Source: Gemmobacter serpentinus (GTDB taxonomy: Bacteria > Pseudomonadota > Alphaproteobacteria > Rhodobacterales > Rhodobacteraceae). Taken from it: a DNA stretch of 64,000 nt. The stretch lies in the NCBI RefSeq assembly GCF_008973825.1, contig NZ_WCHR01000018.1, positions 124,001-188,000 on the forward strand. Reading direction: 5' to 3'. The translations under genes and the position numbers were made by a program. The notes beneath the pieces are model-generated. The model saw only the letters and a list, made by a program, of their open reading frames with translations. It had not been told where the DNA came from and made no database searches. Shown in pieces: positions 3 to 13,825 of this stretch. The first letter of the stretch is position 1. Each line of letters opens with the position of its first letter.

Positions 3-3000
3 CTGCGCACGGTGGAGACGGCGGAATATCTGGCGGTCATGTCCGAGGCAGGCCAGATCGCCTTTCCGCCGGAAACCGTGCTGGCGCGGGGCCGGATCGA
101 GGCGGGTGGGATGCTGTGCTATGATCACAGGGCCCGGCGCAGCTTTGGCACCACCGAGGCACTGGAGATGCTGGCCGCGCGGCGCGACTATCCGGCGCTC
201 TTGTCGCAGGCGCGGCTGCGTCTGGCCGATCTGCCGCAGGTGCCGGAGGATCGTCAGGGCAGCCCCTTGCGCTATTCCGGCGATCTGGGGCGCGCGGCGC
301 GCTATGTCGCCTATAGCCACAATCAGGAAAGTTTCCGCTTTCTGATGGACCCTATGCTGGCGACCGGGGCCGAAAAGGTTTCGGCGATGGGCTATGGCAA
401 TGCGATCAACGCCCTGTCGGACAATGAGGGTGGTGTCGCCAAGTATTTCAGTCAGCGTTTCGCGCAGGTGACCAACCCGCCGCTCGACAGTATCCGTGAG
501 GCGGATGGCATGACGCTGCGGGTGGCGCTTGGGGCCAAGCCCAATCTCGGCGCGCAGCCCGCGCCGCAGATCGTTGTCGACAGCCCGATCCTGAGCCATC
601 TGGACATGCTGAAGATCCGCGAGCAGACGGCAACGCCGGTGCGCCGTTTCGAGATGCTTTATTCCCCGGTCTTCGGCGTCCCTGCCGCGAATGAGGCGGC
701 GCTGACCGCCGCGATTGACGCCATCGCGGCCGATGTCGCGGGCTTTGCGGCCGAAGCCGGAGGTATTGCCACGATCTCGGATCGCCACGTCAGCACGGAT
801 CGGGCCGCGATCCCGATGACGCTGATGGTGTCGGCCATCAACCAGAAACTGATCGAGGAAGGCCTGCGGCTACGCGTGTCGCTGATCGTGGAATCCGGCC
901 AGATTTCCTCCAGCCATCACATCGCTTGCGCCTTGGGCTTTGGGGCGGCGGCGGTCTATCCGCTGGGCGTGCAATTGCGCGCCGAAGAGAAATACGGGGC
1001 AGATGCCGACAAGGCCTTCCAGAAATTCGCCAAGGCCGCCGAGAAGGCCCTGATGAAGACCATGGGCAAGGTCGGACTTTGCACCGTCGAAAGCTATTCG
1101 GGCGGCGAGTTCTTTGAACCGAACTTCCTGGATACCAATGATGCAGTGTTCCGCCGTTACTTCCCGAATGTGAAAACGCCGGTGGGCGGCGTGACCTTTG
1201 AGGTTGTGGCGCAGGCAGTGGCCGACTGGCACCAGCACGCGCTGCGGGTCACGCGTGAGGACGAGATCCCCCTGCTGGGTCTGTTCAAGGAACGGGCCGA
1301 AGGCGCGGGCCACAGTTTTGGCACCACCGCCGTGCGCGGCTTTGTCGATATGACGGAAGAGGCGATCAGCTTCCCGCAGGGCGACGAAGATTCCGATCCG
1401 CTGCGCCTGATGACGCTGAACCGGCTGGAAGATGCCTTTGGCATTTCCGATGACGGCTATGCCAATACGAGCTTTGATCGCCTGACGCCGGAGCGGATCG
1501 ATGCCTTCCGCATCACGCCGGGTTATCGCGCCTTCTCGCGCATGATGGTCGAGGAACGCACCCGCCGTCCGGCCGCGCTGCGCGACGTGCTGGCCTTCCC
1601 CGCCGATGTGACGCGGGCGCAGGCCCCGGACGAGCTCCGCCGCGAGATGAAGAAGTTCGACCGCAAGGGTAACAACAGTTTTCTGGTGCGCGGCCTTGCC
1701 TGCGACGATCTGGGGGCAGGCCAGTTCCGGCTGGTTCTGACTGGGCCGTTGAAGGCCGATCTGGGCCGTCTGGATGCGCTGTCGCAAAGCCTGATCGCGC
1801 GCTTTGGCACAGATATCACCGGCCATTGGATCGAGGGGCTGGCGCTGCGCGTCGAGGCTGCGGGACAGGCCCGTGCCTGGCTGGCGCGTCTGCGTCCGGC
1901 ACCCGAGGGCTTGGATCTGGATGCGGTGCAACCCGCGCATCAGATCACGCCGCTTCTGGCCTCCGGCGCAATGTCGCATGGCGCGCTGGTTGCCACCGCG
2001 CATGAGGCGGTGGCGCATGGCACTAATATGGTCGGCGGCATGTCGAATTGCGGCGAGGGCGGCGAACACCTTAGCCGCTATGGCACCATTCGCGGCAGCA
2101 AGATCAAGCAATTCGCGAGCGGTCGTTTCGGGGTCTGGGCGGGCTATCTGGCCGATCCGCAACTGGAAGAGATCGAGATCAAGATCGGTCAGGGTGCCAA
2201 GCCCGGCGAGGGTGGCCAGCTGCCCGCGCCCAAGGTGACGGTGGAAATCGCGGCGGCCCGTGGGGGCACGCCGGGGGTCGAACTCGTCTCGCCACCGCCG
2301 CATCATGACACCTATTCGATCGAGGATCTGGCGCAACTGATCCATGATGCGAAATCCGCCCGGGTGCGGGTTGTGGTGAAACTGGTATCATCAGAGGGCA
2401 TCGGCACGATTGCGGTGGGCGTGGCCAAGGCGGGTGCTGATGTGATCAACGTGGCCGGCAATACCGGCGGCACGGGGGCGGCCTCGGTCACCTCGCTGAA
2501 ATATACCGGGCGCGCGGCCGAGATCGGCATCGCCGAGGTGCATCAGGCGCTGTCGGCCAACGGCTTGCGCGATCTGGTCACGCTGCGCTGTTCAGGGGCG
2601 CATCAGACCGGGTCGGATGTGGTGAAATCGGCGCTGCTGGGCGGCGACAGTTTTGAGTTCGGCACCACCGCGCTGATGATGCTGAAATGCGTGATGGCGA
2701 AGAACTGCAATATCAAATGCCCGGCGGGTCTGACCACCAACCCCGAGGCGTTTGACGGTGATCCGCGTGCGCTTGCGCAATATCTGCTGAACATCGCGCA
2801 TGAGGTGCGCGAAATTCTGGCGACGCTTGGCCTGCCGTCCTTGCAGGCGGCGCGGGGCCGGGCGGAACTGCTGCATCTGCTGGATCATCCCTCCAGCGTC
2901 GGGCAGCTGGATCTGCGCGCCATGCTGACCGAGGTGCCGGTCCTGCAAGTCGCAGATCCGGTTCGGATGCCGCGCGATTTTGCGGTGGATGATGCCTTTA

Positions 3001-4397
3001 TCGACCTGCTGCGCCCTGCGCTGGAAGGCGGCGCGATGCAGGTCGATCTGGGGGGCAACCTGCATCTGAACAACCGCCACAAATCGGTCGGCGGGCAGCT
3101 GGCCGTCGATCTGGAACGGATGTTGAACCATGAGGGCTTTGCACCCGCCGCAAGCCTTGTCGATGACCGTGGCCGTCGCTTCCTGCGGCCCGGAACGGTG
3201 CAGATCGCGACGCAAGGCGCGGCCGGGCAAAGCTATGGCGCGTTTTGCAATGACGGCATGGTGCTGACCCATACCGGCACCTGCAATGACGGCGTGGGCA
3301 AGGGCCAATGCGGTGGCGAGATCATCCTGCGCAGCCCCGGCGGCGGCTCGGATGCGGCGGGCGGCAATGTGCTGGTTGGCAACTTCGCGCTGTTCGGTGC
3401 GACAGGCGGGCGGCTGTTTGTTGAAGGTCAGGCGGGCGACCGCTTTGCCGTGCGCAACTCCGGTGCCAGTGCCGTGGTTGAGGGAGTGGGGGATTTCTGC
3501 GTCGAATACATGACCAATGGCGCGGTGCTGAACCTGGGTGCCTTTGGCAAGGGCTTTGCCAATGGCATGTCCGGCGGGTTTGCCTACCAGTATGACCCCT
3601 ATGACCAGCTTTCGGCCAAGGTCAGCCAGGATTCTGTTCGCCTCGGGCGGTTTGATGGTGGCGAAGAAAGTCTGGTCCATGTGCAGGCCGTGCGGCACTT
3701 GCTGGAATGGCACCATGCCGCCACCGGATCGGCCAAGGCCGCGTTCCTGCTGGCGAACTGGACGCAGGAGCAGGGGCATTTCGCCTTCGCCCTGCCGCGT
3801 GCCCTGCTGCGATATCAGGACGCGGACGAGATCCTGCGCACCAAACCCCGCAAGGATCTGCTGGAGGAACTGTCGCAGGCGCTGGTCAGCTTTCAGATCC
3901 GCAAGCTGAAAAAGGCATGGCGGGGTGGTATTCCGGTGCTGCGCGGGCAGGTGCCGGGTTATGGTGAGACCGATACCGAGGCGATGTTCGCGCTGCTGAA
4001 CCAGTGGACGGTGCTGGAGGTCGCGCAAGCGATGGCCCGCACCCGCGTTAAGGCGGCGGATGACAGCCCTGCGGCCCGCAAGGCCGCGCGCAACCTGATC
4101 CTGACCGAAGATTACGGGCTGATGACGCGGCTCGCCAAACACGCGCGTCAGGCGGTAGCCGATCATTCTGACGCCGAACTGGCGGCGCTGGTCGCCGACA
4201 AGCGGCTGTCGGATTACAAGGAGGCGCTGTCGTTGCGCAACATCCTGTCGATGGACAGCCCCGGCACCTATGGCTGGATCCTGGATCAAAGCCGCAAGAA
4301 CCGCCGCATTCTGGGAAAGATTCCCTCTTTCGAGGCGCTGTTCGCGCGCCAATCCCTGTCTGACCTGCCCCCCCTTACCGACCTGACCGGAGCCTGA
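3..4397 (+). CDS. GltB-like glutamate synthase large chain, 5' end outside window
   Basis: The frame is open from the window edge, so the N-terminus with the catalytic Cys of the class II glutaminase domain is missing; the first visible residues are the tail of that domain. Then come the glutamate-synthase central domain (about 75-340, with QVTNPPLDSIRE), the FMN/glutamate-synthase barrel (about 640-1000, with GQGAKPGEGG) and the GXGXG beta-helix (about 1060-1200, with GAAGQSYGAF). A 3Fe-4S cysteine cluster near residue 893 reads CVMAKNCNIKC, i.e. CX5CX3C; the classical enzyme has CX5CX4C as I recall it. After the GXGXG domain there are about 240 more residues, much longer than usual GltB tails. 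Family role: transfer of glutamine amide N to 2-oxoglutarate. No GltD is visible; the gene 4 bp downstream is a diflavin reductase that could supply electrons (inference). Confidence 0.9.
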   Translation: MRTVETAEYLAVMSEAGQIAFPPETVLARGRIEAGGMLCYDHRARRSFGTTEALEMLAARRDYPALLSQARLRLADLPQVPEDRQGSPLRYSGDLGRAARYVAYSHNQESFRFLMDPMLATGAEKVSAMGYGNAINALSDNEGGVAKYFSQRFAQVTNPPLDSIREADGMTLRVALGAKPNLGAQPAPQIVVDSPILSHLDMLKIREQTATPVRRFEMLYSPVFGVPAANEAALTAAIDAIAADVAGFAAEAGGIATISDRHVSTDRAAIPMTLMVSAINQKLIEEGLRLRVSLIVESGQISSSHHIACALGFGAAAVYPLGVQLRAEEKYGADADKAFQKFAKAAEKALMKTMGKVGLCTVESYSGGEFFEPNFLDTNDAVFRRYFPNVKTPVGGVTFEVVAQAVADWHQHALRVTREDEIPLLGLFKERAEGAGHSFGTTAVRGFVDMTEEAISFPQGDEDSDPLRLMTLNRLEDAFGISDDGYANTSFDRLTPERIDAFRITPGYRAFSRMMVEERTRRPAALRDVLAFPADVTRAQAPDELRREMKKFDRKGNNSFLVRGLACDDLGAGQFRLVLTGPLKADLGRLDALSQSLIARFGTDITGHWIEGLALRVEAAGQARAWLARLRPAPEGLDLDAVQPAHQITPLLASGAMSHGALVATAHEAVAHGTNMVGGMSNCGEGGEHLSRYGTIRGSKIKQFASGRFGVWAGYLADPQLEEIEIKIGQGAKPGEGGQLPAPKVTVEIAAARGGTPGVELVSPPPHHDTYSIEDLAQLIHDAKSARVRVVVKLVSSEGIGTIAVGVAKAGADVINVAGNTGGTGAASVTSLKYTGRAAEIGIAEVHQALSANGLRDLVTLRCSGAHQTGSDVVKSALLGGDSFEFGTTALMMLKCVMAKNCNIKCPAGLTTNPEAFDGDPRALAQYLLNIAHEVREILATLGLPSLQAARGRAELLHLLDHPSSVGQLDLRAMLTEVPVLQVADPVRMPRDFAVDDAFIDLLRPALEGGAMQVDLGGNLHLNNRHKSVGGQLAVDLERMLNHEGFAPAASLVDDRGRRFLRPGTVQIATQGAAGQSYGAFCNDGMVLTHTGTCNDGVGKGQCGGEIILRSPGGGSDAAGGNVLVGNFALFGATGGRLFVEGQAGDRFAVRNSGASAVVEGVGDFCVEYMTNGAVLNLGAFGKGFANGMSGGFAYQYDPYDQLSAKVSQDSVRLGRFDGGEESLVHVQAVRHLLEWHHAATGSAKAAFLLANWTQEQGHFAFALPRALLRYQDADEILRTKPRKDLLEELSQALVSFQIRKLKKAWRGGIPVLRGQVPGYGETDTEAMFALLNQWTVLEVAQAMARTRVKAADDSPAARKAARNLILTEDYGLMTRLAKHARQAVADHSDAELAALVADKRLSDYKEALSLRNILSMDSPGTYGWILDQSRKNRRILGKIPSFEALFARQSLSDLPPLTDLTGA

Positions 4398-4401
4398 TCC
4401 G

Positions 4402-6147
4402 ATGCGCATCCCCTATATCCCCGAGGACGCCCCCTTTAGCGGCGATCAGCGCGCCTGGCTTTCGGGCTTTCTGGCCGGGCTGCATTCGCGGCAGGCCATG
4501 GGGCTGGTGGAACCCGTCGCCGCTGTCGCCTCGGACGCGAAATCCGCCACGGTGCTGCATGTGCTTTATGGCACCCAGACCGGCAATTCGGAAATGCTGT
4601 CGGAAGATATTGCGACCCGCGCCCGTGGCATGGGGTTCGAGGCCCGCGTGCAGGCCATGGACGATGTGACGCCCGAGGCGCTGGCGGCGATGCGGCGCGC
4701 GGTGCTGGTCTGTTCGACCTATGGCGAGGGCGAGATGCCCGATAATGCCCAGCTGTTCTGGGAGGCCCTGCAAGCCTCCACCGCGCCCCGGTTGGAGGGG
4801 CTGAAATATGCGGTGCTGGCGCTTGGCGATACAGGCTATGACGGTTTCTGTCAGGCAGGCAAACTGCTGGATACGCAGATGGAACAGCTGGGTGCCACGC
4901 GGCTTGCCGCGCGCATCGATTGCGATGTGGATTATGAGGCAGCGGCTTTGGCCTGGGTCGATGCCACCTTGCCATTGGCCGGGGAAAGCCTTCAGGCGGT
5001 CGACACGACAACCGACGCTGCCGCCCCCGCGAAATCGGCGTGGAGCCGCAAGAGCCCCTATCCGTCGCGCCTTGCGGTGAACCGGCTGCTGTCGGGTGCG
5101 GCCTCCGCCAAGGAAATCCGGCATTATGAATTTGATCTGGGCACATCCGGCCTCAGCTATGAGGCGGGCGATGCGCTGGGCGTCACGCCGGTCAACGATC
5201 CGGCGCTGGTGGCAAGCCTGCTGGAACAACTGGGCGCTTCGGCCGATCAGGCAGTGGCAGGCCATGATCGCCCGCTGGGGGATCTGTTGACCCATGCCTT
5301 CGAGATCATGACCCCTTCGCGTGAGATGCTGGCCGAGATCGGCACCCGCGCCAGGGATGACACGCTGTCGCATGTGCTGGCGGGCGATGATCGCGCGGCA
5401 ATCGACGCCTGGCTTTGGGGGCGCGATCTGCTGGATCTGCTGCGCATGTTGCCAAAGGGCGCGATGCCGGCGAGCACCCTGCTGGGCCTGTTGAAGCCTT
5501 TGCAACACCGGGCCTATTCAATCTCCTCCAGCCCCCATGCCGCGCCGGGATCGGTGCATCTGACGGTCGCCTCGGTGCGCTGGATGCGTGAAGGGCGCAG
5601 CCATGGCGGGGTATGTTCCACCTTTCTTGCCGACCGCGCCGGGGCAGAATCCGGGATTTTCGTGCAGCCGAACAAGGCGTTCCGGGTGCCAACGGACGAC
5701 AATCTGCCGCTCATCATGGTGGGGCCGGGCACAGGCATCGCGCCGTTCCGTGCCTTTTTGCAGGAACGGCAGGCGCGGGGGGCCAAGGGGCCGAACTGGC
5801 TGTTCTTCGGCGATCAGCGCCGAGAAAGCGACTTCATCTATGAGGGCGAATTGTCCGAGATGGCAGCGCAGGGCGTGTTGACGCGGCTGGATCTGGCCTT
5901 TTCGCGCGATCAGTTCGAAAAGGTCTATGTCCAGACGCGGATGCGCGAGAATGGCAGGGCGCTGTTCGCCTGGCTCGAGGAGGGCGGCACCTTCTGTGTC
6001 TGCGGCGATGCAACCCGCATGGCGCGTGACGTGGATACCGCGCTGCACGACATCATCGCCACGCATGGGGGGCTGAGCCCTGAGGCCGCAGCCGAATATG
6101 TCAATGGCCTGAAGCGGGCGAAACGCTATCTGCGGGACGTTTATTGA
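4402..6147 (+). CDS. CysJ-like NADPH-dependent diflavin reductase
   Basis: 581-residue cytosolic flavoprotein with the CysJ/cytochrome-P450-reductase layout. The flavodoxin (FMN) domain is at about 52-195 (GTQTGNSEML), the FAD domain follows with the FAD signature YSISSSP near 369, and the NADPH-binding part has VGPGTGIAPFRAF near 440 and CVCGDATRMARDV near 530. It ends in an aromatic residue (RYLRDVY), as these reductases do. The family moves electrons from NADPH through FAD and FMN to a partner such as sulfite reductase. Only 4 bp separate it from the GltB-like gene, and no CysI hemoprotein is nearby, so the likely partner is the GltB-like chain (inference). The N-terminal 50 residues are specific to this type. 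The alternative, a sulfite-reductase subunit with a distant partner, cannot be excluded. Confidence 0.88.
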   Translation: MRIPYIPEDAPFSGDQRAWLSGFLAGLHSRQAMGLVEPVAAVASDAKSATVLHVLYGTQTGNSEMLSEDIATRARGMGFEARVQAMDDVTPEALAAMRRAVLVCSTYGEGEMPDNAQLFWEALQASTAPRLEGLKYAVLALGDTGYDGFCQAGKLLDTQMEQLGATRLAARIDCDVDYEAAALAWVDATLPLAGESLQAVDTTTDAAAPAKSAWSRKSPYPSRLAVNRLLSGAASAKEIRHYEFDLGTSGLSYEAGDALGVTPVNDPALVASLLEQLGASADQAVAGHDRPLGDLLTHAFEIMTPSREMLAEIGTRARDDTLSHVLAGDDRAAIDAWLWGRDLLDLLRMLPKGAMPASTLLGLLKPLQHRAYSISSSPHAAPGSVHLTVASVRWMREGRSHGGVCSTFLADRAGAESGIFVQPNKAFRVPTDDNLPLIMVGPGTGIAPFRAFLQERQARGAKGPNWLFFGDQRRESDFIYEGELSEMAAQGVLTRLDLAFSRDQFEKVYVQTRMRENGRALFAWLEEGGTFCVCGDATRMARDVDTALHDIIATHGGLSPEAAAEYVNGLKRAKRYLRDVY

Positions 6148-6358
6148 GGCCGATGCGCCGGAAGTGCCTTATGGTGGCGGCTGGCTGGCCAGACTGATGG
6201 CCGGGATCTGAACCGGAGTTGAACCGGCACGGGGCTTGACGCCTGTCCCCCGGCGGGCTAGCCCCGCAGGCACCCCAGCCTTTAGTCCGCGATCCGGACC
6301 TTTGTCCGCGCTCTGGCCAGGTATCCCGCCAATTTACCTTGCCGCAAAGGACAGCCTC

Positions 6359-7327
6359 ATGTCGCGCCTGCTTTGCCTTCTTATCCTCACGCTGATCGCG
6401 GCGCTGCCGGCAAGGGCCGAAGAGATCACCCTGCGCCACGGTCTGGGCGAGACCACCTTTGATCCGGCCAAGGTGCAGCGCATTGTCTCGGTCGGCTATC
6501 ATGAGCAGGATTTTCTCTATGGTCTCGGGCTTGCGCCGGTGGGCGTGCATGAATGGTTCGGCGACCGCCCCTATGCGACCTGGTCCTGGGCGGAAGGTGC
6601 GCGCGCGGCCCTGAATGCCACGCCCGAGGTGCAGAACGGCATGGAGATTGACGTGGAATGGGTCTGGTCGATGGAGCCCGATCTGATCATCGCGACCTTC
6701 GCGCCGCTGGATCCGCAGACCTATGCGCAGCTGTCGCAGATTGCGCCTGTGATCGGTCAGCCCGAAGGATATCCGCGTTGGGGTGCCCCCTGGGATGTGG
6801 AACTGCGCCTGATCGCGCAGGCCACCGCGCGCGAGGCCGAGGCCGATGCGATGATTGCCCGCATTCAGGCCCAGATCAATGCGGCCGCCAAGGCCTATCC
6901 GCAGTTCAAAGGCCATAGCGGCACGGCGGCCAGCTTTACCGATGGCCAGATCATCGGCTATCCGGTGCGCGATGGCGGAAACCGCCTGCTGGGGGCGCTT
7001 GGCCTGCAAAGCCCGGCTGAGTTTGACACGCTGTCGGGGGATCGCGGCAATTTCATGGTCAGCCCGGAACGGCTGGACATGTTCGATCTGGATGTCGTGC
7101 TGTGGCAGGTCGATGCGCCGTCGCGCGCGGTGATCGAGACGCTGCCATCGTGGCAGGCTACGCGCATGGCGCGTGAGGGGCGTGCGATCTGGACCGATGA
7201 GGAAATGATCGGCGCGATGAGCTTTCAGTCGCCCCTGTCGATCAGTTGGGCGCTGGATCGGTTGATTCTGCAACTGGATGCGGCCTTGGATGGCGATCCG
7301 GCGACCGGAACCGACCTGCCGCAATAG
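6359..7327 (+). CDS. Periplasmic iron-siderophore binding protein (FecB/FepB type)
   Basis: 322 residues with a Sec signal peptide of about 20 residues (MSRLLCLLILTL, cleavage after ARA). An in-frame ATG-less extension runs upstream, but the start at 6359 puts the signal peptide at the N-terminus. The mature protein fits the helical-backbone type III binding fold: an N-terminal lobe with KVQRIVSVGYHEQD, a long linking helix around DAMIARIQAQINAA and a C-terminal lobe. It would deliver a ferric chelate to the FecCD/FecE importer encoded at 11850-14611. It lies alone upstream of the sigma/anti-sigma/receptor genes, all on the plus strand. The ligand cannot be read from the sequence. Confidence 0.88.
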   Translation: MSRLLCLLILTLIAALPARAEEITLRHGLGETTFDPAKVQRIVSVGYHEQDFLYGLGLAPVGVHEWFGDRPYATWSWAEGARAALNATPEVQNGMEIDVEWVWSMEPDLIIATFAPLDPQTYAQLSQIAPVIGQPEGYPRWGAPWDVELRLIAQATAREAEADAMIARIQAQINAAAKAYPQFKGHSGTAASFTDGQIIGYPVRDGGNRLLGALGLQSPAEFDTLSGDRGNFMVSPERLDMFDLDVVLWQVDAPSRAVIETLPSWQATRMAREGRAIWTDEEMIGAMSFQSPLSISWALDRLILQLDAALDGDPATGTDLPQ

Positions 7328-7454
7328 GCGCTGTGTCTGCGGCGCAATTGCAACAGTGATCTGAAATTGCGGGTGCGTTGCCCGAATGGGTCATCCCCGC
7401 GGTTTGGTCGGGACGCGGGCTAGCTCGCTGCAAATCCTGACTTTTTCACTATGA

Positions 7455-7489
7455 TTTCACGGAGGCGGTCTCGGACAGATCCCGTGAAA
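7455..7489 (+). promoter_or_regulatory. Inverted repeat in the fecI-like leader
   Basis: TTTCACGG (7455-7462) pairs with CCGTGAAA (7482-7489) across a 19-base spacer, about 100 bases before the sigma-factor ATG. Related TTTTCAC sequences occur at about 7444 and 7516. It could be a leader hairpin or an operator for an iron regulator; no consensus was recognised. Confidence 0.3.
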
Positions 7490-7588
7490 GCTAAATTGCT
7501 GCGCTTGCACGGGAATTTTCACGCGCCTATCGAATGGCAAAGCGCCCTTCCCATCCGCTGGCGGGGCGAGGGTGAGCCTAATCGAGCG

Positions 7589-8092
7589 ATGACCGCGAAG
7601 GGTGAGAAAATAGCCGCGCTTTACATGGCGGAGCAGGGGCGGCTGCAACGCCAGATCACCCGCCGCGTCGGCTGTTCCAGCACGGCGGGCGATCTGGTGC
7701 AGGATATCTTTCTGCGGCTGTGGGAACGCGCGACCGACTGGACGGGCGAGCCTGCGGCCTATCTGAACCGCTGTGCCCGTAATGCCGCCATCGATCATCT
7801 GCGGGCAGAGACCCGTCGCAGCACCTTCTTTGCGGGCATTATGCCCGAGCAATATGCGGCAGCCCCCGCGACACCCGAGGCGATCTTGGCCGCGCGGCAG
7901 GATGTGCAGCGTGTCGATGATCTGCTGGCGCTGCTGCCGCAGCGGACCCGTCATATCTTCATCCTGAACCGTATCCATGGCCGCAGTTTCTCGGAGATTG
8001 CGATGGTGATGAATATTTCCAAACGCGCGGTGGAAAAGCATATGGCCAAGGCGGTCGCCGCCTGTGCGGGTGTGGCGGCGGGCGGCGACTGA
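7589..8092 (+). CDS. FecI-like ECF sigma factor
   Basis: 167 residues from ATG 7589. The frame is open further upstream, but this start gives the normal FecI length and places region 2 (DLVQDIFLRLWERA) where expected. Region 4 with its helix-turn-helix is at the C-terminus (RSFSEIAMVMNISKRAVEKH). The family directs RNA polymerase to iron-transport promoters when a loaded TonB receptor signals through FecR. The FecR gene follows 95 bp downstream and the STN-containing receptor after that, the standard order for this signalling cascade. Likely targets are the receptor promoter and possibly its own operon. Confidence 0.9.
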   Translation: MTAKGEKIAALYMAEQGRLQRQITRRVGCSSTAGDLVQDIFLRLWERATDWTGEPAAYLNRCARNAAIDHLRAETRRSTFFAGIMPEQYAAAPATPEAILAARQDVQRVDDLLALLPQRTRHIFILNRIHGRSFSEIAMVMNISKRAVEKHMAKAVAACAGVAAGGD

Positions 8093-8187
8093 GCGCGCCC
8101 GCGCCCAAGAAATATCTGTGCAAGCCGCCGATCCGTCCCTATGTCACCCGCAATGCCGTTTCAGCCAGCCCGGACCATGACCCCCGC

Positions 8188-9177
8188 ATGACTCCCGACG
8201 CCATCCCCCCATCACAGCCCGAGGCTCGGACCGATCCGTTGCAAGCCGCGGCGCAGGCGCATTTTCTGTCGCTGCTGGATGGGCCGGATGCGCAGACCCG
8301 CGCGGCGGTGGCGGCATGGCGGAAGGCCGATCCGGCGCATGAACAGGCGTTCCGCAAGATCGAGGCAGGCTGGCAGGTGGCGGGTGGACCTGCGGCGCGC
8401 ATGGCTGCGCAGGACGAGGCGCAGATTGCGGCCTATCTGGCCCGGATAGATCGCGCCAAGACCCGAAAGCGGGTGGCGGTCGCCCTTTGTGCGCTGTTGG
8501 CGCTTGGGGCGGGTGGCGGTGTCTGGCTGGAGCGTCCGCATCTGATTGCGGATCTGGCGGCGGATTACGTCTCACCGCGTGGTGCGCGAGAACAGGTTAC
8601 GCTGGCCGATGGCACGAAGGTTTTGCTGGATGCTGACAGCGCGCTGATCGAGGATTTCTCCGCGTCTGAACGTCGTGTCCGACTGCTGAGGGGCGCGGCC
8701 TTCTTTGATGTGACGCCGGGCGCGATCCCCTTTATCGTGAGCGCAGCCGAGGGCGAGGTGCGGGTGATGGGCACGGGGTTTGACGTGCGCCTGCAAGACA
8801 CCGGCGCAGACGTCACGCTGGAACATGGCAGCGTCGCACTGACGGCGGGCGGGCAGCCGCTGTTGCTGGAACCCGGGCAGAAGGCCAGCTTTGACCGGGC
8901 AGGCATCGGGCCGGTGCAAACGGTCGATCTGGGCGATGCGCTGGCCTGGCGCGGCGGGCGCTACACCTTTTATCGTGCCCGTTTGAGCGATGTGCTGAAC
9001 GAGATCGGTCGCTATCGCGCGGGTAGGATTGTCGTGACCTCGGCCAGTTTGGCCGAGGCACGGGTCACCGGCAGTTTCGTGCTGGATGACAGCGACACGG
9101 CGCTTGCGGCCCTGCAGGCAAGCCTTGGATTCCGGCAGCGCGTGCTGGCCGGGCGACTGACCATCATTTCGCCCTGA
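8188..9177 (+). CDS. FecR-like transmembrane anti-sigma/sensor
   Basis: 329 residues. The cytoplasmic N-terminal FecR-N region (about 15-75, with WRKADPAHEQAF) would bind the sigma factor. One membrane helix spans about 92-110. The periplasmic FecR domain starts near 130 (REQVTLADGTKVLLDADS). The C-terminal part (RLSDVLNEIGRYRAGRIVV) resembles an STN-like fold that docks with the receptor signalling domain. It carries the signal from the outer-membrane receptor at 9321-11747 to the FecI-like factor at 7589-8092. Confidence 0.9.
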   Translation: MTPDAIPPSQPEARTDPLQAAAQAHFLSLLDGPDAQTRAAVAAWRKADPAHEQAFRKIEAGWQVAGGPAARMAAQDEAQIAAYLARIDRAKTRKRVAVALCALLALGAGGGVWLERPHLIADLAADYVSPRGAREQVTLADGTKVLLDADSALIEDFSASERRVRLLRGAAFFDVTPGAIPFIVSAAEGEVRVMGTGFDVRLQDTGADVTLEHGSVALTAGGQPLLLEPGQKASFDRAGIGPVQTVDLGDALAWRGGRYTFYRARLSDVLNEIGRYRAGRIVVTSASLAEARVTGSFVLDDSDTALAALQASLGFRQRVLAGRLTIISP

Positions 9178-9320
9178 TCGCGGGCACCGGGCAGGCCGCT
9201 GCTCGCGCGTGAGAATTTTTCAAGACTCCAGTTCGGCGATCGGCCCTTTCAGGCGTGAACCCTGTAACGAGCACCAAGGCATAGGCGTCTGACCTGCAAC
9301 CCGGGCTCAAGGATCAGGAT

Positions 9321-11747
9321 ATGAGAGGGGTCTTACCGATGCGTGGAATGAGCGCAAGCAGGGCTGGATATGTGCTGATGGCGGCTTTGCTGGCCAGCAC
9401 GACGATCACGCCGGTCACCATGGCGCAGGCGCAGCAGGCATCAAGCCAGTTCAGCTTTGACATCCCGGCGAAATCGGTGACCCGCGCGGTCAATGATATC
9501 GGCCGCGTTGCCGGGCTTTCGGTCGTATTCCGCGAAAGCGCGCCGATGACTGCCATGGGCCACCCGGTGCAGGGCATGATGAGCGCGGAAGACGCGCTGT
9601 CGACGCTGCTGTCGGGCACCGGCCTCAGCTACCGCTTCAGCAACCCGACCACGGTGCAGATCTATGATCCCAATCTGGTGGCGCAGGGCGATCTGTCGCC
9701 GGATACCGGGGACGCGGTCCTGCTCGGCACGGTCATCATTCAAAGCAAATTGGCCTATTCCGGCGCGATCAGCGGCTATTTGGCCCCCTCGACCGAAACC
9801 GGCGTGAAGGCGGGTGCACCGCTGTCGGAGGTGCCGCAGTCGATTTCCGTGGTGACGACGACCGAACTTGAGGCGCGCCAGCCCCGTCAGGTGGAAGACG
9901 CGATCAAATATACCGCCGGGATCAATGCCTCGACCTGGGGAACCGATGACCGCTTTGATCAATTCGCGATCCGCGGTTTCGATCTGGGCACGCAGGCCAT
10001 GTATCGCGACGGGCTGCCGCAGAAATCCATCAGCTTCACCGCTTTTACCACCGACCCCTATATGATCGAGCGGATCGACGTGCTGCGCGGCCCGGCCGGG
10101 GTGTTGTATGGTTCCAACGATGCGGGTGGCATGATCAACCTTGTCACGAAACGCCCGACCTTTGACCGTCTGGCTGAGGGCAAGTTGGGCTATGACAGCA
10201 ATGGCACCGCGAAGGCCGGGATCGATTGGTCGAATACCGTCAATGCCGGTGGCACGGTGGCCGCACGCCTGACCGGGCTGTTCCGCCAGGGTGAAACCGA
10301 TATCGAGGACAGCGCCAATGACCGGGCTTTCCTGGCCGGTGGCCTGACCTGGTCGCCCAGTGATTACACCGCCCTGACCTTCCTGGGCCATATCCAGCGC
10401 GACTCGCTGACGCCGCTGATCATGTATTCGCAGCCGGGCGTCGATTACGACACCGCATGGGGCACCATGCCGAAGGACTGGGCCTACAAGCAGTCGGATT
10501 ACAACCACTTCAAGACGCGGCAGGAATCCTTTGGCTGGGAGCTGACGCATGAGTTCTCGACCGAGCTGACCTTCAATCAGCGCGCCCGCTTTGCGCATCA
10601 GACCACTGATTACACGCAATTCGACATCTCTTATGCCGACAAGGACGGGCTGTATTACTACCCGTTCCGCATGGATGAAGAGGCCCGCAGCCTGGGCTTC
10701 GACAACTTCCTCGAATGGAAGCGTGGCTTTGATGGTGGCGAAAACAGCCTGATCATTGGGGCCGAATATCAGCGCCGGTCGCTGCGCGAATATGTCTATA
10801 TGGACGGCGTGACGACCTTGGTGCCCTATGGCAGCACTGATCTTGATATGCCCGTGACCGAGCCGCCGCTTTCGGCAAAGGATCGCAAGACCTATACCGA
10901 GCGTGGCATCTATCTGCAGGATCACCTGAAACTTGATACCGGAACCTCGCTGACCTTCGGTCTGCGTCGCGCCTGGCTGGAAGACGAGGCGGTCGATCTG
11001 CTTGCAGGCGGTGTCAGCCGCCAGAAGAACAGCGCGACCACTGGCATGATCGGGCTGACACATGAATTTGCCAATGGCTTGACGCCCTATCTCAGCTACA
11101 CGCAGGGCTTCATCCAGAATGTCGGCACCACCATTGCCGGCAAGGTGCTGGATCCGTCGGAAAGCAAGCAATGGGAGGCCGGTCTGCGCTATGCCCCGAC
11201 CGAGGCGCTGTTGCTGAGCGGGGCGATCTTCGATCTGCGCAAGACCAATGTGAAGGATTATGACCTGAACGATCCGACCTGGGGCAGCTTCACCCAGGCC
11301 GGTGAGATCCGCTCGCGCGGGATCGAACTGGAGGCGCGCGGTCAGCTGACCGAGACGTTGCAAGGCATGATCAGCTATACCTATCTGGATACCGAGATCA
11401 CCAAGAGCACCGACGCATCCCTGATCGGCAACCAGAACGCGATGGCACCCAGGCGCCAGGCCTCGCTCTGGCTGGATTACGATGCGGCGGCGCTGCTGCC
11501 GGGCCTGACCATCGGTGGCGGCATCCGCTATGTCTCGGATTCCTACGCAACCCAGGCCAATCTGCGCAAGACGCCGGGCTATACGCTCGCAGACCTGTCC
11601 CTGCGCTATGATGCCGAGGCCTATGCGCTGGATTTCGGGGTGACCAACCTGTTTGACCGTGATTACAACGGCGTCTGCTATGATGGCTATGCCTGCGCCA
11701 AGGGAGAGGGTCGCATCGTCACGCTGACCCTGAACAAGTCGTTCTGA
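9321..11747 (+). CDS. TonB-dependent siderophore receptor with STN signalling domain
   Basis: 808 residues. Signal peptide at about 1-36 (cleavage near AQAQQA), STN domain at about 44-105 (FDIPAKSVTRAVNDIGRVAG), then a plug domain (SEVPQSISVVTTTELEARQ) and a 22-strand barrel ending in a terminal Phe (TLNKSF). The STN domain marks it as a transducing receptor of the FecA/FpvA class that signals through FecR. An alternative start at ATG 9339 has a good GAGGGG site 8 bases upstream. Hydroxamate, catecholate or citrate specificity cannot be read directly; the adjacent esterase argues for an ester-containing ligand. Confidence 0.93.
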   Translation: MRGVLPMRGMSASRAGYVLMAALLASTTITPVTMAQAQQASSQFSFDIPAKSVTRAVNDIGRVAGLSVVFRESAPMTAMGHPVQGMMSAEDALSTLLSGTGLSYRFSNPTTVQIYDPNLVAQGDLSPDTGDAVLLGTVIIQSKLAYSGAISGYLAPSTETGVKAGAPLSEVPQSISVVTTTELEARQPRQVEDAIKYTAGINASTWGTDDRFDQFAIRGFDLGTQAMYRDGLPQKSISFTAFTTDPYMIERIDVLRGPAGVLYGSNDAGGMINLVTKRPTFDRLAEGKLGYDSNGTAKAGIDWSNTVNAGGTVAARLTGLFRQGETDIEDSANDRAFLAGGLTWSPSDYTALTFLGHIQRDSLTPLIMYSQPGVDYDTAWGTMPKDWAYKQSDYNHFKTRQESFGWELTHEFSTELTFNQRARFAHQTTDYTQFDISYADKDGLYYYPFRMDEEARSLGFDNFLEWKRGFDGGENSLIIGAEYQRRSLREYVYMDGVTTLVPYGSTDLDMPVTEPPLSAKDRKTYTERGIYLQDHLKLDTGTSLTFGLRRAWLEDEAVDLLAGGVSRQKNSATTGMIGLTHEFANGLTPYLSYTQGFIQNVGTTIAGKVLDPSESKQWEAGLRYAPTEALLLSGAIFDLRKTNVKDYDLNDPTWGSFTQAGEIRSRGIELEARGQLTETLQGMISYTYLDTEITKSTDASLIGNQNAMAPRRQASLWLDYDAAALLPGLTIGGGIRYVSDSYATQANLRKTPGYTLADLSLRYDAEAYALDFGVTNLFDRDYNGVCYDGYACAKGEGRIVTLTLNKSF

Positions 11748-11849
11748 TCGCAGAGCGAAGGAAGCGGGCGGCGGCGCACCAAGCGGGCTGCGCCGCCGCC
11801 CTTTGACACTCGGGCGCGGTCTATGCTGCGCAGCGAAAGCTGACACCAC

Positions 11850-12875
11850 TTGGACAATTCCTTCTCCTTTCTGCATTTCGGGGGCCTGCGTCTCGGGGGC
11901 CTGCGTCTCGGGGGGCTGTGGCTGGTCACATTGCTGGCCTTTGGTGGCGCGCTTTGCCTGGGGGCGCAGGATTATCCGCCCGCGCTGATCTGGCAGGCTT
12001 TACGCGATTTCGATCCCGGCAATGCGGCGCAGGCCATCGTCATGGGGATGCGGCTGCCGCGCGCGCTGGCCGCCATGCTGGTGGGGGCATCGCTTGCGGT
12101 ATCTGGGCTGGTGATGCAGGCGATCGTGCGCAATCCGCTGGCCGATCCGGGGTTGACCGGGGTGAATGCCGGGGCGGCGCTGGCGGTTGTGGCCGGGCTC
12201 TGGGTGCTGGGGCCGCTGCCGCAAATGGCGACAGCAGGCCTTGCGCTGCTGGGGGCCGGGGCGGCGGCCATGCTGGTGCGGCTGCTGGCGGGCGGCGGAG
12301 ACAACAGCCTGCGCCTGCCGCTTGCGGGGGCGGCATTCGCCAGCCTTTGCATGGCCATCGTCTCGCTTGTGGTGCTGCTGAACCCCGAGGCACGCAATAT
12401 CTATCGCTTCTGGATGGTCGGATCGCTTGCCCTCGCGGATCGGAACGGTCTGCTGATGCTTGCCCCGGTCGCCTTGGTCGGGATCGGGATTGCCCTTCTG
12501 GTCGCCCGCCAGATCGAGACGCTGATGCTGGGCGGCGAGATGGGGGCGGCGCTTGGCATCCATCCTGGGCGGGTTCTGAGCCTTGGCTTTCTGGCAATCA
12601 CCCTGACGGCAGGCGCGACGGTGGCGCTGGCCGGGCCGGTCGGCTTCATCGGGCTGATCGCGCCGCATCTGGCGCGCCGCATCGCACCGCAATCGGGCCT
12701 TGCGATGACCGTCTTGCTGGCCTGTCCGATGGGGGCAAGCCTTGCGCTGCTGGCCGATACGGCGGGCCGCAGGCTGGTGCGTCCGGCCGAGCTGCCGCTG
12801 GGCATCGTGCTGGCGATGATCGGTGCGCCCGCCTTCATGTTGCTGGTGCGGCGGATGCTGCGGGGCACGGAATGA
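11850..12875 (+). CDS. FecCD-family iron-chelate ABC permease
   Basis: 341 residues, about nine or ten membrane helices, with the FecCD landmarks LRLPRALAAMLVGASLAVSG and the coupling region GFIGLIAPHLARRI. The start is a TTG; an in-frame ATG at 11823 is cut off by a TGA before it, so no ATG start is available. It overlaps the next permease by ATGA (12872-12875), which suggests translational coupling. Together with that permease it forms the inner-membrane channel for the chelate bound by the FecB-type protein. Confidence 0.9.
   Translation: MDNSFSFLHFGGLRLGGLRLGGLWLVTLLAFGGALCLGAQDYPPALIWQALRDFDPGNAAQAIVMGMRLPRALAAMLVGASLAVSGLVMQAIVRNPLADPGLTGVNAGAALAVVAGLWVLGPLPQMATAGLALLGAGAAAMLVRLLAGGGDNSLRLPLAGAAFASLCMAIVSLVVLLNPEARNIYRFWMVGSLALADRNGLLMLAPVALVGIGIALLVARQIETLMLGGEMGAALGIHPGRVLSLGFLAITLTAGATVALAGPVGFIGLIAPHLARRIAPQSGLAMTVLLACPMGASLALLADTAGRRLVRPAELPLGIVLAMIGAPAFMLLVRRMLRGTE
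11879..11923 (+). repeat. 15-bp in-frame tandem repeat in the permease N-terminus
   Basis: The unit CGGGGGCCTGCGTCT occurs at 11879-11893 and 11894-11908, followed by a degenerate third copy to 11923. It encodes GLRLG GLRLG GLWLV at the cytoplasmic N-terminus just before the first membrane helix. The frame is preserved, so it looks like a recent slippage duplication. Confidence 0.8.
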
Positions 12876-13825
12876 GGATTGCGGCCCTCGCCCTGTTGAC
12901 GCTGTTCCTGGCCGCCTTGGGCCTTGCCGCCGGGCGCAACTGGCTGACCCTGTCTGAACTGGCACAGGCGCTGTTTGGGAGCGGGGCCGATGCAAGGATG
13001 GTCTGGAACCTGCGTGTGCCGCGCTTGCTGACCGGGGTGATCGCGGGCGGCTGTTTCGGCCTGTCGGGCCTTGTCTTCCAAAGCCTGCTGCGCAACCCGC
13101 TGGCCTCGCCCGATGTGGTGGGCCTGTCGCAATCTGCGGCGCTTGGCGCGGTGCTGGCGCTGCTGGCGGGGCTGCCGGTTACCCTTGGCGCATGGGCGGG
13201 TGGTGGCGCGGCGGTTCTGATCCTTGCCTGGCTTGCCGCCCATCCCCGCCACGGGATCGAGCCGCGCGCGGTGGTCCTGCAAGGCCTTGGTCTGGCCATT
13301 CTGGCGGGTGCCGCGACCGAGGCGCTGATCCTGCGCGCGAGCGACGGCGATGCCGGGATGGTCATGACCTGGCTGGGCGGCACGTTGAACGGCGTCGGCT
13401 GGCCGGAACTTGCCCGCGCGCTTTGGCTGTTGCCACTGATGCTGCCGCTTTTGCTGGCAGGGCGGGCGCTGGATCGGCTGGAACTGGGTGATGATCTGGC
13501 CCACGCCCTTGGCTTGCGGGTCGGGGCCTTGCGCGCGGGGCTTGGCGCATTGGCCGCGCTTCTGGCCGCTGGTGCCGTGTCGCTTTGCGGGCCGATGGCC
13601 TTTGTGGCACTGGCCGCCGGACCCGTCGCGCGGCTGGCCGCATATGGCCGCCCCAGCCCGGTCACCGCCGCCCTTGCCGGGGCCGCATTCATCACGCTGG
13701 CCGATCTGCTGGCGCGGTCTTTCGCGCCCGCGGCCCTGTTGCCCACCGGGCTTTACACCGCGCTGATCGGCGCGCCGGTGCTGATCCTTGCGGTCTGGCG
13801 GCAAACCCGCCGCGATGCGCCCTGA
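12872..13825 (+). CDS. FecCD-family iron-chelate ABC permease, second subunit
   Basis: 317 residues starting at the ATG that overlaps the previous stop. FecCD features: LRVPRLLTGVIAGGCFGLSG near the N-terminus, GLVFQSLLRNPLASPDVVG, and a C-terminal half with about eight or nine helices in all. It is the partner half-channel of the 11850-12875 permease. The ATPase gene follows 15 bp later. Confidence 0.9.
   Translation: MRIAALALLTLFLAALGLAAGRNWLTLSELAQALFGSGADARMVWNLRVPRLLTGVIAGGCFGLSGLVFQSLLRNPLASPDVVGLSQSAALGAVLALLAGLPVTLGAWAGGGAAVLILAWLAAHPRHGIEPRAVVLQGLGLAILAGAATEALILRASDGDAGMVMTWLGGTLNGVGWPELARALWLLPLMLPLLLAGRALDRLELGDDLAHALGLRVGALRAGLGALAALLAAGAVSLCGPMAFVALAAGPVARLAAYGRPSPVTAALAGAAFITLADLLARSFAPAALLPTGLYTALIGAPVLILAVWRQTRRDAP

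What the first reader, a model, noticed from the sequence alone, without database searches (positions are those of the whole stretch)
3..6147. GltB-like glutamate synthase chain paired with a CysJ-like diflavin reductase instead of GltD
The two genes are 4 bp apart on one strand. Bacterial GltB normally takes electrons from GltD (an FAD/4Fe-4S NADPH oxidoreductase). Here the adjacent reductase is an FMN/FAD protein of the CysJ type with all its flavin and NADPH motifs, and no sulfite-reductase hemoprotein is visible. This suggests a hybrid enzyme in which a diflavin reductase feeds a glutamate-synthase-like catalytic chain, possibly with a different acceptor.
Basis: partly seen in the sequence, partly recalled or inferred. 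Interest (0 to 1): 0.7.

Follow-up and report, generated by a model that had tools for sequence, protein, structure and literature searches.

The report
Glutamate synthase with a CysJ-like reductase
Some bacteria appear to make glutamate with an uncharacterised form of glutamate synthase that takes its electrons from a CysJ-like flavin reductase instead of the usual iron-sulfur partner GltD, and in some of them it seems to be the only glutamate synthase present.

Summary
The window cuts the first gene; its full product (1,823 aa, here GltB2) has all four glutamate-synthase domains. A complete CysJ-like diflavin reductase (CysJ2) starts 4 bp downstream.

The pairing is not accidental. 80 of 80 fetched relatives and 13 of 13 loci from other searches (some the same) have CysJ2 directly downstream; they span alpha- and gammaproteobacteria and Actinomycetota.

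In 57 distinct genomes, all 37 with a canonical GltB have a Fer4_20 (GltD-type) protein, in 36 next to that gltB. Of the 20 where GltB2 is the only GltB found, none has a recognisable GltD. In 17 of 18 gammaproteobacterial loci hemE follows the pair, with aroK-aroB upstream wherever the contig reaches, the neighbourhood of gltB-gltD in Acinetobacter and Pseudomonas. Tested active-site residues are conserved.

Best reading: NADPH -> FAD -> FMN (CysJ2) -> [3Fe-4S] -> FMN (GltB2) -> glutamate, a class distinct from GltB-GltD and ferredoxin-GOGAT. My open-access searches listed no paper describing it. Electron transfer and product are inferred, not shown.

The parts
3..4397 (+). gltB2: glutamate-synthase-like large chain, 3' 1,464 codons plus stop; the gene starts about 1.07 kb before the window (full length 1,823 aa with a GATase_2 glutaminase domain)
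303..1118 (+). central domain (PF04898)
   Evidence: residues 101-372 of the window fragment
1566..1958 (+). fragment holding the roughly 100-aa region inserted in GltB2 before the FMN domain, with short conserved ends; modelled as beta-beta-alpha-beta-beta-alpha; no Pfam family
   Evidence: alignment; model (mean pLDDT 81.8)
1914..2831 (+). FMN/synthase domain (PF01645, best stretch)
2688..2720 (+). three cysteines, C-x5-C-x3-C, predicted [3Fe-4S] ligands (canonical GltB: C-x5-C-x4-C)
   Evidence: 88 of 88 GltB2 rows; 8 of 8 canonical rows have the longer spacing
3171..3650 (+). GXGXG domain (PF01493)
3846..4394 (+). GltB2-specific helical C-terminal extension (about 180 aa), no Pfam family above cut-off
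4402..6147 (+). cysJ2: CysJ-like diflavin reductase, 581 aa
4561..4950 (+). flavodoxin-like FMN domain of CysJ2 (PF00258)
5044..5625 (+). FAD-binding domain of CysJ2 (PF00667)
5716..6036 (+). NAD(P)-binding domain of CysJ2 (PF00175)
   Evidence: NADPH-motif residues (roles recalled) invariant in rows that reach them

Best explanation
gltB2-cysJ2 encodes a two-component NADPH-dependent glutamate synthase. NADPH reduces FAD on CysJ2 and electrons pass to the CysJ2 FMN domain. That flavodoxin-like domain docks on GltB2 and passes single electrons to its [3Fe-4S] cluster and on to the FMN of the synthase site, where 2-iminoglutarate, made from 2-oxoglutarate and ammonia released by the N-terminal glutaminase domain, is reduced to glutamate. 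CysJ2 thus replaces the FAD/2x[4Fe-4S] subunit GltD. Shown by sequence and comparative genomics: domain and motif conservation, pairing in every locus examined, no recognisable GltD where GltB2 is the only GltB found, and occupation of a gltBD neighbourhood. Inferred: physical complex, electron path, product, and docking through the GltB2-specific additions.
For: Adjacency: 80 of 80 loci fetched (the best 80 of 446 matching stretches) and 13 of 13 loci from other searches (at least two repeat loci of the 80), down to 52-54% identity. Co-inheritance: Mantel r 0.934 over 88 pairs, 0 of 999 permutations as high. Phylogenetic profile over 57 distinct genomes: 37 of 37 with canonical GltB have a Fer4_20 protein, 36 of them beside that gltB (the other, G170, has gltB at a contig edge); of 20 genomes with GltB2 only, 19 have no Fer4_20 and the one match (G180) is below the GltD cut-offs shown. 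Four of the 20 are rated 100% complete, one of them a single contig (G398). Gene order: hemE directly downstream of cysJ2 in 17 of 18 gammaproteobacterial loci and aroK-aroB upstream in the 15 whose contig reaches that far; A. baumannii has pilMNOPQ-aroK-aroB-hyp-gltB-gltD. G264 carries gltB-gltD-gltB2-cysJ2 in a row. Residues: glutaminase Asn and Gly, tested FMN-domain residues, the Met aligned by eye with the reported Met479, and three Cys in 88 of 88; nucleophile Cys in 85 of 88 with 3 gaps; CysJ2 FMN, FAD and NADPH motif residues invariant in all rows that reach them (82-88 of 88). Not a general sulfite-reductase subunit: 6 of 15 GltB2-only genomes tested have no NIR_SIR domain, and the 5 SAR92/Porticoccaceae genomes with a second CysJ have it next to the NIR_SIR gene.
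Against: No biochemistry, expression or interaction data. The co-inheritance value would also arise for any two genes always inherited together, so it adds little beyond adjacency. The 15 GltB2-only genomes reached through loci have no stated completeness and many are MAGs; one first counted as such (G153) carries a contig-edge gltB end plus gltD. The 80 loci are the best matches (88% identity or more in the search segment), so unpaired relatives could be missed. Four GltB2-only genomes (G156, G161, G162, G174) have a NIR_SIR gene but no CysJ-like protein other than CysJ2. In Xanthomonas sacchari aroK-aroB and hemE are about 9 kb apart with no gltB between, so the gltBD neighbourhood is not universal. 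The AF2 model of residues 624-1823 is weak (mean pLDDT 66) and no complex was modelled. In the CysJ tree three long-branch CysJ-like proteins fall among CysJ2 without resolved support, and the most distant CysJ2 (G264, G398) are only 47-48% identical. The window's own genome has canonical gltBD.
Confidence: 0.85

Rival explanations
1. CysJ2 is the flavoprotein of assimilatory sulfite reductase working in trans with a distant CysI, and its place beside gltB2 is incidental.
For: CysJ2 passes the cut-off of one 'sulfite reductase subunit alpha' model (NF004859, 459 vs 432 bits). It is the only CysJ match in the window's genome, which has a NIR_SIR gene on another contig. Four GltB2-only genomes (G156, G161, G162, G174) also have a NIR_SIR gene and only CysJ2.
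Against: It misses the cut-offs of two CysJ equivalog models (TIGR01931 584 vs 668; NF008197 476 vs 838). It is paired with GltB2 in every locus examined. 6 of 15 GltB2-only genomes tested have no NIR_SIR domain. In the 5 SAR92/Porticoccaceae genomes with a second CysJ, that one sits beside the NIR_SIR gene, and the two put in a tree group with E. coli CysJ.
Confidence: 0.06
2. GltB2 is a ferredoxin- or flavodoxin-dependent GOGAT; CysJ2 only recycles that carrier or does something else.
For: Ferredoxin-GOGAT also works without GltD (PMC8097209). GltB2 keeps the [3Fe-4S] cysteines.
Against: The stretch between GEGGE and KQFASGRFG, where the ferredoxin-GOGAT loop lies (position recalled, not from a call), is 13 aa in 83 of 88 rows (5 did not match the pattern), as short as in E. 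coli GltB. The adjacent reductase has its own FMN domain and needs no carrier.
Confidence: 0.06
3. GltB2-CysJ2 aminates a 2-oxo acid other than 2-oxoglutarate, or uses another amide donor, so it is an amidotransferase-reductase with a different product.
For: 34-35% identity to canonical GltB; a deep separate clade; extra regions; co-existence with canonical GltB in 37 of 57 distinct genomes.
Against: Conserved catalytic motifs; the only GltB found in 20 of 57 genomes, 13 of which have no PF00208 (glutamate dehydrogenase family) match above 100 bits (8 of the 13 have partial matches of 23-43 bits); it occupies a gltBD neighbourhood in the SAR92 group.
Confidence: 0.08

Closest known systems
Bacterial NADPH glutamate synthase GltB-GltD (e.g. 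Azospirillum 6S6S/2VDC, 7MFM)
   Same: GltB2 has the glutaminase, central, FMN and GXGXG domains, catalytic motifs and three cluster cysteines
   Different: Reductase is CysJ-like diflavin, not GltD; cluster spacing C-x5-C-x3-C; inserted region before the FMN domain; about 180-aa C-terminal extension; misses the equivalog cut-off (788 vs 1047 bits for the window fragment)
Ferredoxin-dependent glutamate synthase (Synechocystis 1OFD/1LLW)
   Same: Large chain works without GltD; [3Fe-4S] and FMN (PMC8097209)
   Different: GltB2 has an adjacent diflavin reductase gene and no insertion at the ferredoxin-loop position (position recalled; length)
CysJ, flavoprotein of NADPH sulfite reductase (6EFV, 1DDG)
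   Same: Same three-domain architecture and cofactor motifs, 40% identity to E. coli CysJ
   Different: Beside GltB2, not CysI; below TIGR01931 and NF008197 cut-offs; some host genomes have no NIR_SIR gene
Diflavin-containing nitrate reductase (Tan et al. 2020, seen only as a reference-list entry in PMC10704036)
   Same: Precedent for a diflavin module feeding another acceptor; proteins annotated 'bifunctional nitrate reductase/sulfite reductase flavoprotein' are among the CysJ2 matches; that these are the same kind is recalled
   Different: Acceptor is a nitrate reductase and the module is part of one chain

Membership tests
NADPH glutamate synthase (GltB-GltD) | Large chain with GATase_2, central, FMN and GXGXG domains | tested here: met
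NADPH glutamate synthase (GltB-GltD) | Partner subunit GltD (FAD plus two [4Fe-4S]) | tested here: not met
   No gltD hit in any of the 80 loci; no recognisable GltD in 20 of 20 GltB2-only genomes. Where canonical gltBD coexists, use of that GltD by GltB2 is not excluded
NADPH glutamate synthase (GltB-GltD) | NCBIfam GltB equivalog score (NF008730) | tested here: not met
   788 bits against cut-off 1047, but for the window fragment (1,464 of 1,823 aa) only
NADPH glutamate synthase (GltB-GltD) | NADPH-, glutamine- and 2-oxoglutarate-dependent glutamate formation | not testable with these tools
   needs enzyme assay
Ferredoxin-GOGAT | Insertion (ferredoxin loop) in the FMN domain; position recalled | tested here: not met
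   13-aa stretch in 83 of 88 rows, 5 unmatched by the pattern
Ferredoxin-GOGAT | Ferredoxin as electron donor | not testable with these tools
   needs assay
CysJ sulfite reductase flavoprotein | Flavodoxin, FAD and NAD(P) domains with CysJ motifs | tested here: met
CysJ sulfite reductase flavoprotein | Score above the CysJ equivalog cut-off (TIGR01931) | tested here: not met
   584 vs 668 bits; NF004859, a 'sulfite reductase subunit alpha' model, is passed
CysJ sulfite reductase flavoprotein | A sulfite reductase hemoprotein in the same genome | tested here: inconclusive
   NIR_SIR domain in 43 of 50 CysJ2 genomes and in the window's genome, on another contig; none in 7 of 50

The most novel reading that the evidence does not exclude
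A further class of glutamate synthase: a diflavin (CysJ-type) GOGAT that has spread across phyla and has replaced gltBD in place in a marine gammaproteobacterial group (SAR92/Porticoccaceae). It would be an iron-sparing version of a central enzyme, with 3 Fe per protomer predicted instead of 11, comparable to flavodoxin replacing ferredoxin. The iron-sparing role is speculative: siderophore-uptake genes neighbour the pair in the window and in Ketogulonicigenium but such genes were found in a minority of loci.
Probability: 0.4. Interest if true: 0.82.

Novelty: new variant of a known kind. Interest (0 to 1): 0.7.

Why it matters
GS-GOGAT is a central route of ammonia assimilation, and the review section read here names only GltD-type (separate or fused) and ferredoxin electron supply for glutamate synthase (PMC8097209 section 6.1). 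A form with a CysJ-type donor that is the only GOGAT in whole lineages would change annotation ('glutamate synthase-related protein' and 'sulfite reductase subunit alpha' would be two halves of one enzyme), metabolic models of those bacteria, and the view of how freely this enzyme exchanges its redox module. It is directly testable with two genes.

Tried and rejected
Considered and rejected: a CysI or other redox partner upstream (next upstream gene is RgpF-like); chance adjacency (80 of 80); CysJ2 as sulfite reductase flavoprotein (see rivals); split-domain N-methylglutamate synthase (recalled; here all four GOGAT domains are in one chain).

Led nowhere or only weak: the fold search of the inserted region gave no match with E <= 0.001; the top matches include glucose-type EIIB domains (E 0.027-0.18), a lead only. 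The 1,200-aa model matched known GltB chains but with low TM (0.27-0.36) and mean pLDDT 66, too weak to place the additions around the cluster. Flank clustering showed no neighbour shared by more than 22 of 80 loci. Window iron-uptake proteins in the flanks: TonB-like in 6 of 90 loci, FecCD-like in 4 of 90, the other three queries in none. No sigma-70-type promoter match. Literature (open-access PMC only): 20 of 504 listed; 15 of 35; 15 of 33; 15 of 143; 12 of 87; 3 of 3; 4 of 4; 12 of 67; no listed paper describes the pair by title or start of abstract. Unlisted papers were not seen.

Corrections made: G153 was first counted as GltB2-only by PF04898, but its contig C71 starts with the end of a canonical gltB followed by gltD. 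G078 and G170 show identical match coordinates and are counted once, so 58 handles give 57 distinct genomes. In the co-inheritance test 3 of 91 were dropped (L070 split hit; L020 and L024 with a stop inside the hit). In the structure alignment 53 of 78 usable loci were given, and 52.
Full report
The observation. Window frame 3-4397 (+) runs off the window's 5' edge and encodes a glutamate-synthase-like chain; 4402-6147 (+) encodes a 581-aa diflavin reductase 4 bp later. The window lies in G000, contig C12. The complete first gene is 1,823 aa from an ATG preceded by AGGGAAGGG, or 1,873 aa from an upstream ATG. It has GATase_2, Glu_syn_central, Glu_synthase and GXGXG domains, and the glutaminase N-terminus reads SSCGVGF. 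I call it GltB2. The second protein has Flavodoxin_1, FAD_binding_1 and NAD_binding_1; its residues 52-581 align with CysJ of 6EFV (E 5e-122). I call it CysJ2. NCBIfam equivalog cut-offs are missed for GltB (NF008730, 788 vs 1047 bits, window fragment only) and for CysJ (TIGR01931, 584 vs 668; NF008197, 476 vs 838); the 'sulfite reductase subunit alpha' model NF004859 is passed (459 vs 432).

The same genome holds a canonical gltB (1,512 aa) and a gltD (478 aa, TIGR01318 542 vs 483 bits) on contig C58, and one NIR_SIR gene on contig C11. CysJ2 is the only match to itself at E <= 0.001.

Conserved pairing. tblastn of GltB2 against plasmids gave nine records at 60-80% identity (Sinorhizobium, Shinella x2, Neorhizobium, Ketogulonicigenium x4, Tsukamurella), and all nine carry CysJ2 directly downstream (positions; annotation). 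A scan of a collection of 84,980 species genomes with a 98-aa GltB2 segment gave 446 stretches that encode a relative; the best 80 loci were kept. They come from Rhodobacterales, Hyphomicrobiales, SAR92/Porticoccaceae/Cellvibrionales and Mycobacteriaceae by title, plus one Planctomycetaceae MAG. In 80 of 80 a CysJ2-like sequence lies downstream on the same strand; in 79 the gap between the hits is 8-101 nt, and in L070 the GltB2 hit is split. Thirteen loci from other searches, down to 52-54% identity, also have it (13 of 13; L013 and L015 appear to repeat L048 and L089). GltB2 is otherwise uncommon: 4 of 149 genomes drawn from the family (own included, E <= 1e-200) and 6 of 398 drawn from the phylum (own included, E <= 1e-170). 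Distance matrices of the two proteins correlate at r 0.934 over 88 pairs, 0 of 999 permutations reaching it, maximum 0.18; this shows joint inheritance, not contact. In a tree of 21 GltB2 and eight canonical GltB (Proteobacteria, Actinomycetota, Bacillota, Bacteroidota, Deinococcota and a haloarchaeon) GltB2 is one side of a branch with SH-aLRT 100. In the CysJ tree the GltB2-linked proteins cluster (0 of 500 shuffles as low), but three long-branch CysJ-like proteins fall among them unresolved.

Who needs which partner. Fer4_20, the GltD N-terminal domain, was found in 36 of 50: in 34 of the 34 and in 2 of the 16. In 33 of the 34 it lies on the same contig within 5 kb of the canonical gltB match; in G170 gltB is at a contig edge and the only Fer4_20 is elsewhere, so it may not be GltD. 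Of the two others, G153 in fact has a contig-edge gltB end followed by a real gltD (TIGR01317, 711 vs 448 bits) and so is not GltB2-only; G180 has a 590-aa protein below all the GltD-type cut-offs shown. Eight more genomes from the unbiased draws (one, G078, the same as G170) gave five GltB2-only genomes, none with Fer4_20, four of them rated 100% complete and one of those (G398) a single contig; the three with both GltB types have Fer4_20. Together: 57 distinct genomes; 37 with canonical GltB, all 37 with a Fer4_20 protein and 36 with it beside that gltB; 20 GltB2-only, none with a recognisable GltD. In 13 of the 20 no PF00208 match exceeds 100 bits, though 8 of the 13 have partial matches of 23-43 bits over the Pfam cut-off. 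The large GDH family PF05088 was not tested, and many of these genomes are MAGs.

Replacement in place. In 17 of 18 gammaproteobacterial loci (SAR92/Porticoccaceae/Cellvibrionales by title) hemE lies directly downstream of cysJ2, and aroK-aroB lies upstream in the 15 whose contig reaches that far, many with pil genes before them (Pfam identities for L046). In A. baumannii the annotated order is PilM-PilN-hyp-PilP-PilQ-aroK-aroB-hyp-gltB-gltD. In P. aeruginosa the tags PA5034 hemE, PA5036 gltB, PA5038 aroB and PA5039 aroK give the same neighbourhood (passages of PMC3579789 and PMC13380032). In X. sacchari aroK-aroB and hemE are about 9 kb apart with no gltB between, so the order is not universal. 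The exception among the 18, L026, belongs to G153. In G264 gltB-gltD-gltB2-cysJ2 lie in a row on one strand.

Not a general sulfite-reductase subunit. No NIR_SIR domain was found in 7 of 50 CysJ2 genomes, including 6 of 15 GltB2-only ones. In the 5 SAR92/Porticoccaceae genomes that have a second CysJ-like protein (37-39% identical to CysJ2), that protein lies beside the NIR_SIR gene; the two put in a tree group with E. coli CysJ. Against this, four GltB2-only genomes have a NIR_SIR gene and only CysJ2 (G156, G161, G162, G174), so a shared use there is not excluded.

Mechanism. In 88 aligned GltB2 the HNG Asn and Gly, the tested Lys and His of the FMN-domain motifs, the Met aligned by eye with the Met479 that the review names as a possible mediator between cluster and FMN, and three cysteines are invariant; the nucleophile Cys is present in 85, with 3 gaps. 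The cysteines are spaced C-x5-C-x3-C in 88 of 88, against C-x5-C-x4-C in 8 of 8 canonical chains. CysJ2 FMN, FAD and NADPH motif residues (motif roles recalled) are invariant in every row that reaches them (82-88 of 88). The simplest path is NADPH -> FAD -> FMN (CysJ2) -> [3Fe-4S] -> FMN (GltB2). GltB2 differs from canonical GltB by added sequence before the FMN domain and a C-terminal helical extension, neither with a Pfam family above cut-off. They are candidates for the CysJ2 docking site; this is inference. The predicted enzyme needs 3 Fe rather than 11 per protomer (GltBD cofactors).

Known or new. The review section read here (PMC8097209, section 6.1 in full; 'CysJ' and 'diflavin' do not occur in the paper) names GltD-linked, GltD-fused and ferredoxin-linked glutamate synthases, and archaeal separate domains. 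My open-access searches listed no paper describing this pair. A precedent for recruitment of a diflavin module is a nitrate reductase (Tan et al. 2020, reference-list entry only). I rate it a new variant of a known kind: it works like NADPH-GOGAT, but is not filed as GltB-GltD because the GltD feature was tested and not met.

Noticed in passing
window 6236-13825: Directly downstream of the pair lies what looks by eye like a siderophore-uptake cluster (periplasmic binding protein, ECF sigma, FecR, TonB-dependent receptor, FecCD-type permeases; no family search was run). Ketogulonicigenium vulgare also has an annotated siderophore-uptake cluster near the pair, but it is not general.
   Followed up: partly
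L005:10712-10734: Inverted repeat TTATGTC-N9-GACATAA about 190 bp before the gltB2 start codon (seen by eye), possibly an operator.
   Followed up: no
L125 (Paracoccus sp. TOH plasmid p2): A stand-alone CysJ-like diflavin reductase (about 50% identical to CysJ2) near two glutamine synthetase-like genes, an aldehyde dehydrogenase and glyA; its acceptor is unknown.
   Followed up: no
L110 (G150, mycobacterial genome) and L109 (G157): Further stand-alone CysJ-like diflavin reductases of about 555 aa that fall near CysJ2 in the tree without resolved support; partners unknown.
   Followed up: no
G150, G155, G176, G179, G184, G188: These Actinomycetota genomes carry three GltB-type chains each: two canonical in length plus GltB2.
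   Followed up: no
L024: The GltB2 reading frame of this uncultured Rhodobacteraceae contig has a stop inside the matched region: decay or assembly error.
   Followed up: no
window 1566-1958: The inserted region is predicted as beta-beta-alpha-beta-beta-alpha; weak, non-significant resemblance to glucose-type PTS EIIB domains.
   Followed up: partly
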